NCBI RefSeq assembly: GCF_000312385.1
Contig: NZ_HE997627.1
Span: forward strand, 724,019 to 788,018
Length of the DNA: 64,000 nt
Direction: 5' to 3'
Source: Tsukamurella sp. 1534
GTDB lineage: Bacteria; Actinomycetota; Actinomycetes; Mycobacteriales; Mycobacteriaceae
Shown here: piece by piece, positions 8,250-28,029 of the stretch
How the letters are laid out: each line of letters starts with the position of its first letter
Position numbering within the stretch: the stretch's first letter is position 1
Notes under the pieces: generated by a model
The model's database searches: none
What the model was told of the DNA's origin: nothing
Seen by the model: the letters and a program-made list of their open reading frames with translations, nothing else
Made by a program: the position numbers and the translations under genes

Positions 8250-10643
8250 TCAGTCGTCCTCGCGGCGGTGCCGCCGCGAACGGCTGACCCGGTCCGCGTG
8301 GGACGACTGATCGGGATGATGCATGCCGTCCGCGTCAGGAGCGGCGTGCCGGCCCCCCTGAGCGGGCCCCTGCGGCACGAACTGCCGCTGCGGCTGCTGC
8401 GGCGCGGGCGCGTGCGGCGGGCGCTGCATCGGCTGACTGGGACGCGGGACCTGCCCCGAGGGACGGGGCTGCTGCGGTCCCGGCGCCTGCGGCGGGCGCT
8501 GCATCGGCTGGCTCGGCCGGTTCAGCGGCCGGCTCGGCCGGTACGCGGGGTCGCTCGGCCGGTAGGTGGGGTCGCTCGGCCGGTTCAGCGGCTGGCTGGG
8601 GCGCCGCATCGGCTGGCTGGGCCGGTACTGCTGCTGGGGCTGCCCGGCGGGCGGCGACCCGGCGGGCGGCTGCTGCGGCGGCACGGCCGGGCGCTGCATA
8701 TCGGCGCTCTCGCGGCGGATCGGGCCGGACGGGCGCGCGACGCCGGCGAGGTCGTCCCCCGGCTGCGCGGTGCGGCGCGGCAGCGGGTCGCTGGGGTGCG
8801 AGTAGGCCTGCTGCGGCTCCGACGGGCCGACGGGCCGCTGCGGCGGCGCGACGGGCACGTTGCGGGTGGTCGGCTGCGGGGCCTGCGGGCCGTCCTGCCG
8901 CGCAGCCCCCTCCGCATCGGGCCGCTTGATGGCGCGGAAGCGGTCCGTGAAGTATACGGGCTCCGGATCGCCGGGCTTCTCGTTGTAGGCGCGGTCGAAG
9001 TCCTCGCGGCGGATCGCGGCGAACGATCCCGAGGTGACGTCGCCCTCGATGGGCTCCCAGTCCTCGTCCACATCGTCCTCGTCCGCGAACGCCTGCGCCG
9101 GGAACGACGTGGAGTGGACCACGCCGCCGGACTTGCTGGACGCCTCGGCCTCCTGGCCCTCGGCGATCTCCGCCGGGGTGAACCGCATGAACGGCACCAC
9201 CACGAGGCCGGCGAGGATGAGGATCACGGCGCACGAGATGAACGCGAGCCCGTAGCCCGAGGCCAGCGCGGTGATCTGTGGCGGCGAGAGGGTGTCGTGC
9301 GTGAGGTGACCGGAGGTCGGGCCGCCCTCCTTCATGATGCGCGAGGTCACCGCCACCTGGACCGAGGCCAGGCCCACGATGCCGCCGATGTTCTGCGCGA
9401 CCTCGATGAGAGCGGTGAGCGGGCCGATCTCCGAGGGGCGCACGCCGGCGACCGCGGCCAGCGGGAGCGGCAGCATCGCGAAGCCCACGCCGATGCCGAT
9501 GAGGAACACGGGGACGCCGATCTGCGGGAAGTACGAGATCGTCGCGGGGTCCTGGTCCATCAGCGTCGGGACGTAGACGCAGGGCCCGAACACGATGAGG
9601 CCGCCGAAGGCCACGAGCCAGCGGGCCTGGAACTTCTGCACGAGCTTGGAGCTGATGGCGATGGAGATGCCCATGCCCACGGCGAACGGCAGCAGGGCGA
9701 TACCGGACTGGAACGGCGTGTACCCGAGCACCAGCTGGAACGTGAGCGCGACGTAGAAGCCCAGGGTGGGGATCAGGGCGCCGCAGACCAGGATGCCGAT
9801 CATGGCGGCGACACGGTTGCGGTTGTTGAACAGCGAGAACGGGAGGATCGGGTTCTTGGCGGTGCGCTCCACCATGAGGAACGCGACGAGGCACACGGCG
9901 CTGAACACGAGCGCCGCGTAGACCAGCGGGCTCTGCCAGTGCAGTTCCGGTCCGGCGGTGAGGGCGTAGACGCCCGAGACGCAACCCGCGACCGCGAGCA
10001 CCGCGCCCTTGACGTCCAGCGCGTGCCGGCGCTCCGAGGTGGCCTCGTCGAGGCACAGGTAGCCGCCGACGGCGCAGGCGATGCCGACGGGCACGTTGAT
10101 CCAGAACACGAGGCGCCAGTCGATGGTGGCGAGCAGGCCGCCGGCGACGAGGCCCGCCACCGATCCGAGGCCCGCCATGGCGCCGAAGATGGCGAACGCC
10201 TGGTTGCGCGCCTTACCGGGCGCGAAGGTGGTGGCGATGAGGGCGAGCGCCGTCGGGCACGCGATGGCCGCGAACAGGCCCTGGGACGCGCGGGCGGCGA
10301 GCATCCAGTACTCGTTCGTCGCGAAGCCGACCAGCGCCGAGGCGAGCGTGAACCCGACGACGCCCAACAGAAACATCTTCTTGCGCCCGAAGGTGTCACC
10401 CAGCCTGCCGCCGAGCAGCATGAAGCCGCCGAAGGTGAGGGCGTAGGCGCCGAACACCCACACCTTCATGGCGTCCGTGAGGTTCAGGGCGTCCTGGATG
10501 ACCGGCATCGCGACGAAGACGACCGTGCCGTCCAGCACGGCCAGGAAGACCATGCCGCACAGCACGAAGATGGGGATCCCGAGAGCGCTGCCCTTGACGC
10601 GGTACGTCTGCGCCGGGCCCTCGGGTGCCATCGTTGATGTCAT
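8250..10643 (-). CDS. efpA: EfpA-type MFS drug exporter with long repeat tail
   Basis: A 14-helix DHA2/QacA-type MFS exporter, orthologous by position and sequence to mycobacterial EfpA, a proton-driven efflux pump. Motif A appears as GGRLGDTFGRKK, motif C-like glycines as GAMAGLGSVAGLVAGG, and VLDGTVVFVAMPVIQ is in helix 1. Membrane domains end near residue 495. The remaining 300 residues are cytoplasmic and rich in Pro/Gln/Arg. They include a run of RPSQP, RPSDP and RPSRP units and a basic end (SRSRRHRREDD). EfpA is about 530 residues in M. tuberculosis, so the tail is extra. TAGCCT 8 nt before ATG 10643 suggests a leaderless transcript. Confidence 0.9.
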   Translation of the reverse strand: MTSTMAPEGPAQTYRVKGSALGIPIFVLCGMVFLAVLDGTVVFVAMPVIQDALNLTDAMKVWVFGAYALTFGGFMLLGGRLGDTFGRKKMFLLGVVGFTLASALVGFATNEYWMLAARASQGLFAAIACPTALALIATTFAPGKARNQAFAIFGAMAGLGSVAGLVAGGLLATIDWRLVFWINVPVGIACAVGGYLCLDEATSERRHALDVKGAVLAVAGCVSGVYALTAGPELHWQSPLVYAALVFSAVCLVAFLMVERTAKNPILPFSLFNNRNRVAAMIGILVCGALIPTLGFYVALTFQLVLGYTPFQSGIALLPFAVGMGISIAISSKLVQKFQARWLVAFGGLIVFGPCVYVPTLMDQDPATISYFPQIGVPVFLIGIGVGFAMLPLPLAAVAGVRPSEIGPLTALIEVAQNIGGIVGLASVQVAVTSRIMKEGGPTSGHLTHDTLSPPQITALASGYGLAFISCAVILILAGLVVVPFMRFTPAEIAEGQEAEASSKSGGVVHSTSFPAQAFADEDDVDEDWEPIEGDVTSGSFAAIRREDFDRAYNEKPGDPEPVYFTDRFRAIKRPDAEGAARQDGPQAPQPTTRNVPVAPPQRPVGPSEPQQAYSHPSDPLPRRTAQPGDDLAGVARPSGPIRRESADMQRPAVPPQQPPAGSPPAGQPQQQYRPSQPMRRPSQPLNRPSDPTYRPSDPAYRPSRPLNRPSQPMQRPPQAPGPQQPRPSGQVPRPSQPMQRPPHAPAPQQPQRQFVPQGPAQGGRHAAPDADGMHHPDQSSHADRVSRSRRHRREDD

Positions 10644-23796: not shown

Positions 23797-24666
23797 TTAC
23801 GAAGCCGAATCGCTGGGGAGGGTGAGGATCTCGGCGCCGTCCTCCGTCACCACCAGGGTGTGCTCGAACTGCGCCGTCCACTTCCTGTCCGTGGTGGCCA
23901 CCGTCCACCCGTCGGACCAGATCTCGTAGTCGAGTCCGCCCAGGTTGATCATCGGCTCAATCGTGAACACCATCCCGGTCTCCAGCACCGTGTCCACGTT
24001 CGGCTCGTCGTAGTGCAGCACCACCAGGCCGTTGTGGAAGGTCTCGCCGATGCCGTGGCCGGTGAAATCGCGGACAACGGTGTAGCCGAAGCGATTCGCG
24101 TACGCCTCGATGACGCGGCCCACCACGTTGAGCTCGCGCCCGGGCTTCACCGCCTTGATCGCGCGCATCGTGGCGTTGTGCGTGCGCTCCACGAGCAGGC
24201 GGTGCTCCTCGGAGACGTCGCCGGCGAGGAAGGTCGCGTTGGTGTCGCCGTGCACCCCGTCGATGTAGGCGGTCACGTCGATGTTGACGATGTCGCCGTC
24301 CTCGATCACGGTGTTGTCCGGGATGCCGTGACAGATCACCTCGTTGAGGGAGGTGCAGCAGCTCTTGGGGAAGCCCCGGTAGCCCAGCGTCGACGGATAC
24401 GCCCCGTGATCGATCATGTACTCGTGCGCCACCCGGTCGAGGTGATCGGTGGTCACGCCGGGCCGCACCTCCGCGCCGGCGGCCTGCAGCGCGTCCGCGG
24501 CGATCCGCGAGGCGAGGCGCATCTTCTCGATCGTCTCCGGGGTCTGCACCCACGGTTCGTTCCCCTCGTTCGCCGACTTCTTGTCGACGTACTCGGGGCG
24601 CTCGATCTGGGAGGGAACCGCCAGCCGGGGCGCGACGGTGCCGGGGGTCAGTGCTGCGCGCGTCAT
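23797..24666 (-). CDS. map: Type I methionine aminopeptidase
   Basis: Removes the initiator methionine. The 289 residues include a short N-terminal extension as in actinobacterial MapB. The five metal ligands are visible: Asp in [19 protein letters not shown] (two Asp), His in [11 protein letters not shown], Glu in FTIEPM and Glu in [24 protein letters not shown] precedes the first ligand. TAGGCT lies 6 nt before ATG 24666, and no Shine-Dalgarno is seen. Upstream gene of a map-cobQ-hydrolase run. Confidence 0.95.
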
Positions 24667-24678: not shown

Positions 24679-24829
24679 TCCGCCGCGCGCCCGCGCGCCT
24701 CCCTTGCGGCCCGCTCAGCCCGGCGCCCCGTCGTTCCTGCGCCCGCCCCCGCTTCTGCCCGCCCCCGCTTCCACCTGCCCCCGCTTCAGCCGCCGACACG
24801 TCCACGCGACAGCACGCGGCACCTCCCGC

Positions 24830-24965
24830 CCGCTTCCCGCGACACCGAGCCGTTCCCGCGATCGCCATGGTGATCGCGAGAACAGCTCACGATCGCGGGA
24901 ACCCCAGTGCCCGATCGCGGGAACGATTCATGATCGCGGGAACGGCTCACAATCGCGGGAAGCGG
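24830..24965. repeat. Structured repeat R1 flanking the AbiEi-like gene
   Basis: About 135 bp that recur in direct orientation at 25995-26131, with about 12 differences counted by eye. The ends are inverted (CCGCTTCCCGCGA and TCGCGGGAAGCGG, 13 bp perfect in R1). Inside, one inverted copy of GATCGCGGGAAC is followed by five direct copies or close variants spaced roughly 19-22 nt. R1 ends 22 nt after the restored stop of the frameshifted gene. Not a CRISPR: the spacers are short and are conserved between R1 and R2. Confidence 0.85.
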
Positions 24966-24987
24966 ACCGCCGCTCACGCGGCGTCGA

Positions 24988-25924
24988 TCACGCGACCTCG
25001 ATCAGCAGCCCGGCAGTACCGAGGGAACGACGCAGCTTGCCGCGCAACAACGCCGGCGTGAGGCAGTGCTTCCACCTCCAGTGCGTGGTCTTCATTCCGA
25101 GTTCCGAGAGCAGCTCGTCACGGTTGGACTGCCCCTCCGCCGTGGCGCCGTTGGAGTACTTGGACTCTCCGTCGAACTCCCCCCGCCACGACGCCGCGCC
25201 ATTCGAAGTCCGGAACGCAGAGCAGCTCGCCCGTCTCGCCGCGGAACTCGCGCTGCAGCGCCGGCTCCGGGATCTCGGGCCACTTGTGCATCAGCGCGCG
25301 GCTGTAGGACTCTCCGAGCGACTGCGGCAGGGCGGACGCCCGTGGCAGCACCGCGCGCAGCAGGTCGGCGCCGTTGCGCCGCCCGAGCCGGGCCGCCGCA
25401 GCCACGAGGTCCTCCTGCGGCACGCCGAGGCGGCGCGCCGAATCGAGAACACAGATCCCCTGCTCGTAGGTGCCGGCCAACACCAGGTCCAGAGCCGTCC
25501 GCGCGATCGCGGTGCACGCCAAACCCTCGACCACCGCGACGTCCTCGGCGTCGAGCCGCCGCATGTGCACGCGTCGCCGTCCCGACCGGCGGCCCCCGCT
25601 TCTCCCCGGCGCGGTGAAGTCCACCGAGTCGTAGTCCGGATGGAGTGTCTCGAGCCCGTGCAGCACCGCGGCCGCACCGTGACTGAGCACCAGCCCGACG
25701 CCGGAGTTCTCGGCGGCGGCCCGCGCCATCAGCAGGAACTCCTCCTCCGCGGGCAACGGTCCGGCGGCGCGGTAGCGGCCCGGCCACACCCGGACCAGAC
25801 GATGCGCATCCGTGTACGCCCGGATCTCGGCGTCCCCGCGCCCGATCGCACGAAGCTGCGCGCGCGTGCGGAGTTCGCGCGCCGGATCCGGCGACGCATG
25901 AGGATCCCGATTCTCCTGATTCAC
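24988..25924 (-). pseudogene. AbiEi-like wHTH / DUF559-like nuclease-fold protein, frameshifted
   Basis: Start GTG 25924 with GGGGGAG 6 nt upstream. The N-terminal part (RTRAQLRAIGRGDAEIRA, LVRVWPGRYRAAG) is the winged-helix type seen in AbiEi-family antitoxins. The C-terminal part is a PD-(D/E)xK-like fold. The first frame reaches PDFEWRGVVAGG and stops at 25118. Removing one base from the C6 run at 25179-25184 (G6 on the coding strand) restores GEFDGESKY and about 50 more residues up to the stop at 24988. The shift falls between the PD and ExK motifs. It may be a decayed gene, a phase-variable tract or a sequencing error. No AbiEii toxin partner lies alongside. Confidence 0.8.
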
Positions 25925-25994
25925 GACTACCTCCCCCAAGGTGTCAGCGATCCTCGCAGAACCCTCCGACAAGTCCGCGCGGCTACCACCCGCC

Positions 25995-26131
25995 CCGCTT
26001 CCCGCGACACCGACCTGTTCCCGCGATCACCATGGTGATCGCGGGAACAGCTCACGATCGCGGGAACCCCACGACCCGATCGCGGGAACGATTCATGATC
26101 GCGGGAGCGGCTCGGTGTCGCGGGAATGCGG
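25995..26131. repeat. Structured repeat R2 flanking the AbiEi-like gene
   Basis: Direct copy of the repeat at 24830-24965, about 91% alike. It contains a perfect 32-bp palindrome at 26017-26048 centred on CATG, followed by further GATCGCGGGAAC units. The outer ends are again inverted (TTCCCGCGACACCGA against TCGGTGTCGCGGGAA). It lies about 70 nt upstream of the GTG start of the frameshifted gene. In R1 the 32-bp palindrome has two mismatched base pairs. Confidence 0.85.
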
Positions 26132-26190: not shown

Positions 26191-28029
26191 TCAGCTGGGG
26201 GTGGCGCCGACCGGGGCGTCGTAGCGGTCGAAGAACGCCTTGGTCACCCCGACGGCGTTGTCGGAGCTGCCGCCGAGGACCACCATCGTGGCGAACGCGA
26301 GGTCGCCGCGGTAGCCGACGAACCAGGCGTGCGAGCCACCGTCGACCTCCGCTTCACCGGTCTTGCCGAGGATGTCGCCGGCCCCCCGGATCAACTCGGC
26401 GGTACCGGAGGCGACCACCTCGCGCATCATCGCGCGGAGCCCGTCGACGGCCTTGGGGTCGAGCGGCGGACGGTCGCCGGTCACCGTGGTGGGCTTGCCC
26501 TGCAGCAGTTGCGGGGTGACCGCGCCGCCCTTCGCGACGGCCGCGGTGGCGAGGGCCATCGAGAACGGGCTCACGAGCACCTGCCCCTGGCCGAAGCTGT
26601 CCTCCACCTGGTTCACCAACGCCTTCGGCGTGGGGTACCCGCCCGAGGACACCGGTAGCCCGGGGATCCAGTACTCCGGGCCGATGCCGAGTTCCTTGGC
26701 GGCGGTGGGCAGCGCATCGAACGGCATCTTGGAGCCGAGGAACGCGAAGCTGGTGTTGCAGGACCGCGCGAACGCCCGCTGCATCGTGACGTCACCGAGT
26801 GCGAACCTGTTGTAGTTCGGCACTTCTCGTTCGCCGATCGTGAGCGTGCCGGGACACGGGACGATGGTCTGCGGGGTCGCGAGGCCGGTGGACATCGCCG
26901 CGGTGGCCGTGACGATCTTGCCCGTCGAGCCGGGCGGGTACAGGCCCGACGTGGCGAGCGAGCCCAGCTTGTCGGCCTCCGGGTTCTGCGCCACGGCGAG
27001 CACGTCGCCCGTGGACGGCTGGATCACCACCATCATCGCCTGCTTGTCGCGCCGGGTGTCGACGGCGGCCTGCGCCGCCGCCTGGGCGATCGGCGAGATG
27101 CTCACCTTGACCGACGGGGCGGGCTGCGGCGCAGTGGACGCCAGCGTGGTGACCTGCGCACCGGTGTCCGCCTCCGCCACCACCTCCCAGCCGTCCTTGC
27201 CGTCCAGGTCGCCCTCCACGTTCTTCTTGATCGACGACATCAGCGCCGGAGCGAAGGTGCGGTCGGTCGGCACCAGATCGGCCTGCTCGATGAGGGTGAC
27301 GCCCGGCAGTGACGTGAGATCACCGGGGAGCTTGCGGAGGTCGTCCTGGTTCACCGACGCGACCACGTAGGGGGCGCCGAGCGATGTGGCCTGCTCCGTG
27401 ATCTGCACCGGATCGAGGTCGGGGACGATCGGCTGCAGCGCCCGGGTGAGCTGCCCCGCCACGTCGAGCACCGTCGTGGGCGCGGTCACCTTGGTGGGGT
27501 CGAGGCGGATCCGGTTCACCACCCCCGGTACCAGGACGGAGCCGCCGGACGCGGAGTTCACCGGGGCCTTGGGCGCGGGCAGGGCGCGCAGCACCATGGT
27601 CTGGTTGGCTCCGAGACGCGGATGCAGGACGGCGGGGGCCCACCGCACCTTCCACTGCCCGTTCTCCTGGACGGTGGTGAACGTGCCCTCGTACTCCCAG
27701 GTGCGGCTGGACCGCCCCTGCTCCGCGGGCAGGTCCCACTCGTACGCGTAGTCGACGTCGCTCGTGGCGCCGGTGGTCCGCACCTGGCCGATCTTGAGTG
27801 TCACGCCGCGCGCCTGGAGACGCTCGAAAGCGCTCCGCAGCGACGCCTCGGCCGTCTCGGGCGACGTGGTGAGGCCCGCCGCGGCGTCGAAGTCCTTGTC
27901 CGCGAGGGCCGCTCCGAACCGGACCGCCACCGGCCCCGGGCCGTTCGTGTTCTCCGACGAGCACGCCACCGGCGCGACCATCGCCAGCACGGCGAGGATC
28001 GCGATCGAGCGGACGCGCAGGTTCTTCAC
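26191..28029 (-). CDS. Penicillin-binding lipoprotein (class B PBP, Rv2864c-like)
   Basis: A 612-residue peptidoglycan transpeptidase anchored as a lipoprotein (signal peptide and lipobox VAC, Cys23). An NTF2-like MecA_N domain covers about residues 30-145, a PBP dimerisation domain about 155-300 and the transpeptidase about 325-605. Active-site motifs are S368-TGK, S423-CN and K556-TG, all intact. GTG 28029 starts VKNLRVRSIAILAVL; TAGCCT (28041-28036) lies 6 nt before it. It is downstream of the SDR gene on the same strand. Confidence 0.93.
   Translation of the reverse strand: MKNLRVRSIAILAVLAMVAPVACSSENTNGPGPVAVRFGAALADKDFDAAAGLTTSPETAEASLRSAFERLQARGVTLKIGQVRTTGATSDVDYAYEWDLPAEQGRSSRTWEYEGTFTTVQENGQWKVRWAPAVLHPRLGANQTMVLRALPAPKAPVNSASGGSVLVPGVVNRIRLDPTKVTAPTTVLDVAGQLTRALQPIVPDLDPVQITEQATSLGAPYVVASVNQDDLRKLPGDLTSLPGVTLIEQADLVPTDRTFAPALMSSIKKNVEGDLDGKDGWEVVAEADTGAQVTTLASTAPQPAPSVKVSISPIAQAAAQAAVDTRRDKQAMMVVIQPSTGDVLAVAQNPEADKLGSLATSGLYPPGSTGKIVTATAAMSTGLATPQTIVPCPGTLTIGEREVPNYNRFALGDVTMQRAFARSCNTSFAFLGSKMPFDALPTAAKELGIGPEYWIPGLPVSSGGYPTPKALVNQVEDSFGQGQVLVSPFSMALATAAVAKGGAVTPQLLQGKPTTVTGDRPPLDPKAVDGLRAMMREVVASGTAELIRGAGDILGKTGEAEVDGGSHAWFVGYRGDLAFATMVVLGGSSDNAVGVTKAFFDRYDAPVGATPS

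What the first reader, a model, noticed from the sequence alone, without database searches (positions are those of the whole stretch)
24830..26131. Gene cassette bounded by two structured direct repeats
Two copies of a roughly 135-bp element with about 12 differences lie directly on either side of a single gene, 22 nt past its stop and about 70 nt before its start. No other copy is seen in the window. The enclosed gene is an AbiEi-like wHTH plus nuclease-fold protein, and the block interrupts the map-to-PBP order otherwise shared with M. tuberculosis. Together this looks like a small mobile or exchangeable unit that carries a defence-like gene without a visible transposase.
Basis: partly seen in the sequence, partly recalled or inferred. 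Interest (0 to 1): 0.75.

Follow-up and report, generated by a model that had tools for sequence, protein, structure and literature searches.

The report
Nuclease gene with its own repeats
A DNA-binding, nuclease-like gene in Tsukamurella and related actinobacteria usually sits between two copies of a folded DNA repeat that differs from gene to gene, and spare copies of the repeat lie elsewhere in the genome, which looks like a so far undescribed kind of small mobile or selfish DNA element.

Summary
In detail: two 133-nt direct copies (91% identical) bound one AbiEi-like gene between map and a PBP gene. The gene belongs to a family (AbiEi-type winged helix plus PD-(D/E)XK-like C-terminus) matched in 55 of 61 genomes sampled from the GTDB family. 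In 37 of 48 intact loci, and 15 of 19 in a second set, the gene's two flanks share a repeat that scores above the maximum of 75 control genes. Each gene lineage has its own repeat. The window family has seven further copies in its genome; three other repeat families are also dispersed. One pair encloses an unrelated gene absent from that site in the six relatives checked. Another site is filled in 5 and empty in 6 of 16 genomes. Best reading: a minimal nuclease-repeat element that works like a REP/RAYT pair with an unrelated enzyme. Association and cognate pairing are shown; binding, cleavage and movement are inferred. The window's own copy has a broken reading frame.

The parts
24829..24961 (+). 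Repeat copy 1: array of TTCCCGCGA / TCGCGGGAA units in inverted order around a CCATGG core
   Evidence: 133 nt, 91% to copy 2; unit spacing 19,20,19,22,19,19 nt; DNA fold z = -7.0
24853..24882 (.). Core palindrome of copy 1 (one mismatch to the searched core)
25118..25972 (-). AbiEi-like gene, first open piece: winged-helix module and start of the nuclease-like domain; likely GTG start at 25924
24988..25194 (-). Second open piece in another frame: the GEFDG..K part of the nuclease-like motif to the stop; the frame is broken between the two pieces (the upper bound is only the limit used)
   Evidence: two tblastn pieces in different frames; piece searched apart, no family hit
25994..26126 (+). 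Repeat copy 2, same architecture, direct orientation
   Evidence: z = -8.8
26018..26047 (.). Core palindrome of copy 2, TTCCCGCGATC-ACCATGGT-GATCGCGGGAA, perfect
23797..24666 (-). map (methionine aminopeptidase), left neighbour, context only
   Evidence: Peptidase_M24, 1.8e-52; neighbour of PBP in all 15 other genus genomes
26191..28029 (-). Penicillin-binding protein (MecA_N + transpeptidase), right neighbour, context only

Best explanation
The block is one member of a family of minimal two-part elements: a gene for a winged-helix plus PD-(D/E)XK-like protein, bounded by two cognate palindromic arrays. The AbiEi-type module probably binds the short motif that recurs about every two helical turns in the array. 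The nuclease-like domain probably nicks or cuts at the array, perhaps when it is folded out as a hairpin. Repair or copying then spreads the array, alone (solo repeats), with its own gene (the full unit), or with another gene caught between two arrays. It thus works like a REP/RAYT pair with an unrelated enzyme. Shown: gene-repeat linkage, cognate pairing, dispersal, presence/absence at fixed sites, nuclease-like motif. Inferred: binding, cleavage, active movement. The copy in this window probably no longer makes a full-length protein.
For: Flank pairing: 37 of 48 intact family genes exceed the maximum of 75 control genes (Mann-Whitney p = 4e-17, nominal because loci are related); 15 of 19 further loci pass the same threshold. 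Cognate: in 37 of 37 the pair is more alike than any repeat, among these 37 loci, from a protein under 60% identical; repeat similarity falls with protein identity. Dispersal: 9 sites of the window family in its genome; 9 of the L106 family including a 98% flanking pair; 4 of L108 plus a fragment. The TTCATAACG pattern has 3-5 sites in the five genomes with the cognate gene, 1 in each of two others, 0 in nine. Presence/absence: site Y filled in 5, empty (2-113 nt) in 6 of 16. Passenger: 207-aa gene between two window-family copies, absent from that site in 6 of 6 relatives checked. Protein: E209, D243, E253, D255, K259 invariant in 48 of 48; AlphaFold pLDDT 90.7 with alpha-beta3-alpha-beta order.
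Against: No target-site duplication or precise junction could be read; intergenic DNA between species is too diverged. 11 of 48 and 4 of 19 genes lack a pair above threshold. X-type units of G003, G005 and G015 score near shuffles and G014 only slightly above. The loci were picked by peptide patterns that contain E209 or E253/D255/K259, so the invariance of those residues is partly built in; D243 is not in the patterns. Control genes were long ORFs chosen by base composition, not annotated genes. Weaker matches to the TTCATAACG repeat stretch exist in genomes without that gene, for example G003 and G015. No relative in IMG/VR or the phage set; in the plasmid set only three Tsukamurella replicons. 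Copy numbers are low, and one solo site is shared by four species, so some copies are old. In the L108 family one solo copy is closer over 66 nt than the flanking partner. AbiEi proteins bind inverted repeats for autoregulation, which alone could explain the upstream copy.
Confidence: 0.52

Rival explanations
1. Autoregulation. The arrays are operators for the AbiEi-like protein, which may loop the gene between an upstream and a downstream operator; dispersed copies are other targets of the same regulator. The unit moves rarely, by ordinary recombination.
For: AbiEi and Rv2827c bind 23-bp inverted repeats upstream of their own genes and not each other's (passages of PMC7319586). The window arrays have 19-22-nt spacing. 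In 34 of 37 paired loci the repeat ends 50-190 nt before the start of the matched region.
Against: Does not explain a second copy 0-60 nt past the stop in 35 of 37 paired loci, a nuclease-like domain, or the pair around an unrelated gene.
Confidence: 0.25
2. Homologous exchange. Dispersed palindromic arrays are recombination substrates, and genes, this family among others, are caught or swapped between two copies without any action of the encoded protein. The orientation flip in G009 comes from the near-palindromic ends.
For: Unrelated gene bounded by two window-family copies; opposite orientation at the same site in G009; the array copies match both directly and inverted.
Against: Would not give each protein lineage its own repeat (37 of 37), nor tie the TTCATAACG repeat so closely to its gene.
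Confidence: 0.13
3. Defence or addiction nuclease held in check by its own arrays, which act as self-marks or sinks.
For: The AbiEi profiles come from a defence library.
Against: The window unit holds no partner gene; no relative in the phage sets; does not explain an enclosed unrelated gene.
Confidence: 0.06
4. The repeats are strong hairpin terminators between genes, alike by chance or local duplication, with no link to the gene.
For: They are stable hairpins; at one solo site other species hold an unrelated hairpin.
Against: 0 of 75 control genes exceed the score that 37 of 48 family genes exceed; between-locus repeat scores are low.
Confidence: 0.04

Closest known systems
REPtrons: REP palindromes with RAYT / TnpA-REP (PMC3733652 passages, PMC8266576 abstract)
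   Same: One gene flanked by palindromic repeats, cognate repeat specificity, dispersed solo repeats
   Different: No Y1 transposase among the Pfam families matched by 48 members; winged helix plus PD-(D/E)XK-like protein instead; paired stretches are about 40-180 nt and copy numbers low
AbiEi antitoxins of type IV toxin-antitoxin systems (PMC7319586 passages)
   Same: N-terminal module matches AbiEi profiles; AbiEi proteins bind inverted repeats upstream of their own gene
   Different: Nuclease-like C-terminus; no partner gene in the window unit; repeat also downstream and dispersed
DUF559 / Vsr-like nucleases (likeness recalled)
   Same: PD-(D/E)XK motif order; 2 of 48 members show a weak DUF559 hit
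   Different: Fused to a winged helix and tied to repeats
Tn7 TnsA and Tn7 ends (recalled)
   Same: Nuclease plus winged helix in one protein; ends made of repeated binding sites about 22 bp long
   Different: Reverse domain order; no second transposase gene in the window unit; the two arrays are in direct orientation
MITEs and insertion sequences with solo ends (recalled)
   Same: Non-autonomous copies share the ends of the autonomous unit
   Different: No known transposase profile hit; no target duplication seen

Membership tests
REPtron (RAYT + REP) | HUH Y1 tyrosine transposase | tested here: not met
   No transposase among the Pfam or NCBIfam families matched at E <= 0.1 by 48 members; conserved residues are E, D, E, D, K
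REPtron (RAYT + REP) | Gene flanked by palindromic repeats that also occur dispersed | tested here: met
   Pairs in 37 of 48; dispersal shown for four families
REPtron (RAYT + REP) | GTAG tag at the repeat foot | tested here: not met
   No GTAG on either strand of the two window copies, read; other families not checked
AbiE type IV toxin-antitoxin | AbiEi-type N-terminal module | tested here: met
   PADLOC AbiEi 48 of 48; Pfam AbiEi_4 30 of 48 at E <= 0.1
AbiE type IV toxin-antitoxin | Two-gene operon with an AbiEii nucleotidyltransferase toxin | tested here: not met
   Window: map and PBP are the neighbours. In 35 of 37 paired loci the repeat begins 0-60 nt past the stop, leaving no room for a partner inside the unit. 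Neighbours of the other loci were not annotated
PD-(D/E)XK nuclease | Conserved E, D, (D/E)-X-K in an alpha-beta3-alpha-beta core | tested here: met
PD-(D/E)XK nuclease | DNA cleavage | not testable with these tools
   Needs protein
Insertion sequence / transposon | Known transposase | tested here: not met
Insertion sequence / transposon | Target-site duplication or precise empty site | tested here: inconclusive
   Empty sites found but junctions too diverged to read
Integron gene cassette (attC) | Cassette array with an integron integrase | not tested
   Single unit with a copy on each side; no integrase was sought

The most novel reading that the evidence does not exclude
A new class of mobile or selfish element in Mycobacteriales: a fused AbiEi-type winged-helix and PD-(D/E)XK-like protein that has co-evolved with, and spreads, its own palindromic array. 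It would be a second, independent invention of the REP/RAYT way of life.
Probability: 0.48. Interest if true: 0.9.

Novelty: categorically new. Interest (0 to 1): 0.8.

Why it matters
Proteins with AbiEi-like ends tend to be named antitoxins or left hypothetical (as in the records). If this reading is right, many in Mycobacteriales are parts of nuclease-repeat elements that seed intergenic palindromes and sometimes enclose genes. It would give these bacteria a REP-like system of their own, explain part of their intergenic repeats, and offer dozens of natural protein-site pairs for studying how DNA recognition co-evolves.

Tried and rejected
Integrated phage or plasmid: rejected as the main vehicle. 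No tRNA in the window, no relative in IMG/VR by pattern search or in the phage set, three Tsukamurella replicons in the plasmid set.

Plain intergenic hairpins: rejected by the control genes.

Precise insertion junctions: tried at three sites; flanks too diverged to call target duplications.

Rows left out: of 80 loci, one search used 73; I left out by hand seven with shortened flanks. In that first test 33 of 73 pairs exceeded the 99% point of cross-locus scores, a limit that itself includes orthologous loci. One search tested 57 of the 80 for an open frame and 55 passed; A2 and one search used 48 of the 55, leaving out near-duplicates. Of the 11 misses, wider flanks showed one pair with its downstream copy about 890 nt off (L187) and weak signals at the usual distances in L119, L174, L194 and L167. 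In one search, 27 loci were tested, 21 passed, and 8 overlapped the named set.

Mutual exclusion of the clade-A gene at two sites (4 and 5 genomes, no overlap): not significant by a hand estimate, so not used.

Literature: searches found no paper. Listings (15 of 17; 1 of 1; 10 of 22; 4 of 4; 2 of 2; 12 of 8,633; 10 of 358) showed none on this association by title and start of abstract. Seen beyond listings: passages of PMC7319586 and PMC3733652, abstract and outline of PMC8266576. Preprints and most subscription papers were not searched.

Full report
OBSERVATION. Two direct copies of a 133-nt element (24829-24961, 25994-26126; 91% identical) bound one gene on the minus strand between map and a PBP gene. 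Apart from tandem repeats at 8392-8644 it is the only direct repeat of 45 nt or more within 4 kb found in the window. Each copy is an array of TTCCCGCGA / TCGCGGGAA units, inverted around a CCATGG core, with spacings 19, 20, 19, 22, 19, 19 nt in both copies. Both fold far better than shuffles (z -7.0 and -8.8). The gene's frame is broken just before the conserved E-x-D motif; intact homologues exist elsewhere.

WHERE IT COMES FROM. The genus is Tsukamurella: G012, same genus as the window, has a contig of 263,022 bases that equals a named T. spumae contig. The genus search covers 16 genomes including the window's own.

THE SAME SITE IN RELATIVES. map and PBP are neighbours in all 15 others. 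The gap is 22-102 nt in G010, G011 and G012. G002, G004, G007, G013, G014 and G015 hold an ORF there that I read as acetyltransferase-like (not searched); G003 holds another ORF. In G009 the same gene family sits there, inverted relative to its neighbours and bounded by arrays of the same design but a different unit, TTCCCGCGGC (flank scores 60 direct and 85 inverted, shuffle maxima 28 and 31). Of 12 relatives tested, G005, G006, G013 and G015 carry there one stretch resembling the upstream palindrome of a sister ('X-type') unit (scores 49-78, shuffle maxima 32-35); the other 8 do not exceed shuffles.

THE GENE FAMILY. The N-terminus is AbiEi-like (PADLOC 48 of 48 members; Pfam AbiEi_4 30 of 48). 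In the C-terminus E209, D243, E253, D255 and K259 are invariant in 48 of 48. Caution: the loci were found with peptide patterns that contain E209 or E253/D255/K259, so part of this is built in; D243, W286 and W288 are not in the patterns. The AlphaFold model of the T. spumae protein has pLDDT 90.7 and the alpha-beta-beta-beta-alpha-beta order of PD-(D/E)XK nucleases (fold recognition by motif and order is mine, no fold comparison was possible). The profile matches 55 of 61 genomes sampled from the GTDB family, and named loci from Rhodococcus, Gordonia, Williamsia, Antrihabitans, Kitasatospora and Dietzia among others.

EACH GENE HAS ITS OWN REPEAT PAIR. I compared 400 nt upstream with 400 nt downstream. 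37 of 48 intact family genes exceed the maximum of 75 control genes (long ORFs of the same loci, chosen by base composition; nominal p = 4e-17; direct 33 of 48, inverted 28 of 48). In a second set, found by profile search of whole genomes, 15 of 19 new loci do so. Misses: 11 of 48 and 4 of 19. X-type units of G003, G005 and G015 score near shuffles and G014 slightly above. Among the 37 paired loci, in 37 of 37 the pair is more alike than any repeat from a locus under 60% protein identity. Median between-locus repeat score is 14 at 30-50% protein identity, 42 at 60-75% (14 pairs of loci) and 104 above 75% (2 pairs). The repeat begins 0-60 nt past the stop in 35 of 37 and ends 50-190 nt before the matched region in 34 of 37.

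DISPERSAL. Window family: 9 sites in the own genome, seven away from the gene. L106 family: a 137-nt pair at 98% plus seven more copies at 70-97%. L108 family: the pair, an adjoining fragment and two solo copies. The TTCATAACG pattern has 3-5 sites in each of the five genomes with its gene, one in two others, none in nine; a DNA search adds weaker matches, some in genomes without that gene such as G003 and G015. The window-family core occurs one to three times in five relatives. One such site, past a gene I read as a GMC-type oxidoreductase, is shared by G002, G006, G009 and G012; in G000, G005 and G007 another hairpin lies there. So some solo copies are old.

PRESENCE AND ABSENCE. At site Y, between genes I read as an acyltransferase and a HAD phosphatase, 5 of 16 genomes carry gene plus two TTCATAACG-type palindromes (1209-1312 nt). 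Six have 2-113 nt with neither the gene nor that palindrome; five have 167-1436 nt of other sequence. A solo L106-family copy at C1:371293 is absent from that site in G003, G004 and G008; partial weak matches lie elsewhere in G004 and G014.

A PASSENGER. In the own genome two window-family copies enclose an unrelated 207-aa gene (L013:4718-5341). It is absent from that site in 6 of 6 relatives checked by tblastn; DNA search of the genus gave only matches of some 30-70 nt inside it. In G014 and G004 the site holds a different palindrome; the G014 one resembles the flank of G014's own family gene (score 35, shuffle maximum 27).

MECHANISM. The AbiEi-like module most likely binds the iterated motif: AbiEi and Rv2827c bind 23-bp inverted repeats upstream of their own genes and do not cross-bind (passages of PMC7319586). 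The nuclease-like domain then gives a reason for arrays on both sides and elsewhere: cutting there and repair would copy or move the array and what lies between. Association, cognate pairing, dispersal and presence/absence are shown. Binding, cleavage and active movement are inferred. Autoregulation is the main rival, at 0.25.

COMPARISON. It works like a REPtron, in which RAYT genes are flanked by palindromes that also occur dispersed (PMC3733652 passages; PMC8266576 abstract), but is not one: the enzyme is unrelated. It is not an AbiE operon: no partner gene lies inside the window unit. I found no description of this association (open-access papers only, long listings seen in part). I rate it categorically new because a defining feature of each of REPtrons, AbiE operons and known transposons was tested and not met; if movement is disproved, 'new variant of a known kind' (AbiEi-type autoregulation) would be the better label.

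Noticed in passing
window, 19 places such as 113, 634, 3721, 13372, 34123, 59633: CACCGTCGG / CCGACGGTG occurs 19 times against 2.65 expected from a first-order model; by eye it also recurs in many Tsukamurella intergenic stretches.
   Followed up: partly
L013:4718-5341 (own genome C1): A 207-aa protein gene bounded by two window-family repeats; not found at the site in 6 of 6 relatives checked.
   Followed up: partly
L187: Gordonia family gene whose matching downstream repeat lies about 890 nt past the stop, leaving room for another gene inside the unit.
   Followed up: no
L289, L290, L291 (G012, G005, G007): By eye, another AbiEi-like reading frame begins at the intergenic site where the own genome carries a solo L106-family repeat; not searched.
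   Followed up: no
window 8392-8644: Tandem repeat with spacings of 21 to 75 nt.
   Followed up: no
L107 (own genome C1:129270-130191): A second family gene of the own genome is matched as two pieces in different frames, while those in L106 and L108 are matched in one open frame.
   Followed up: no
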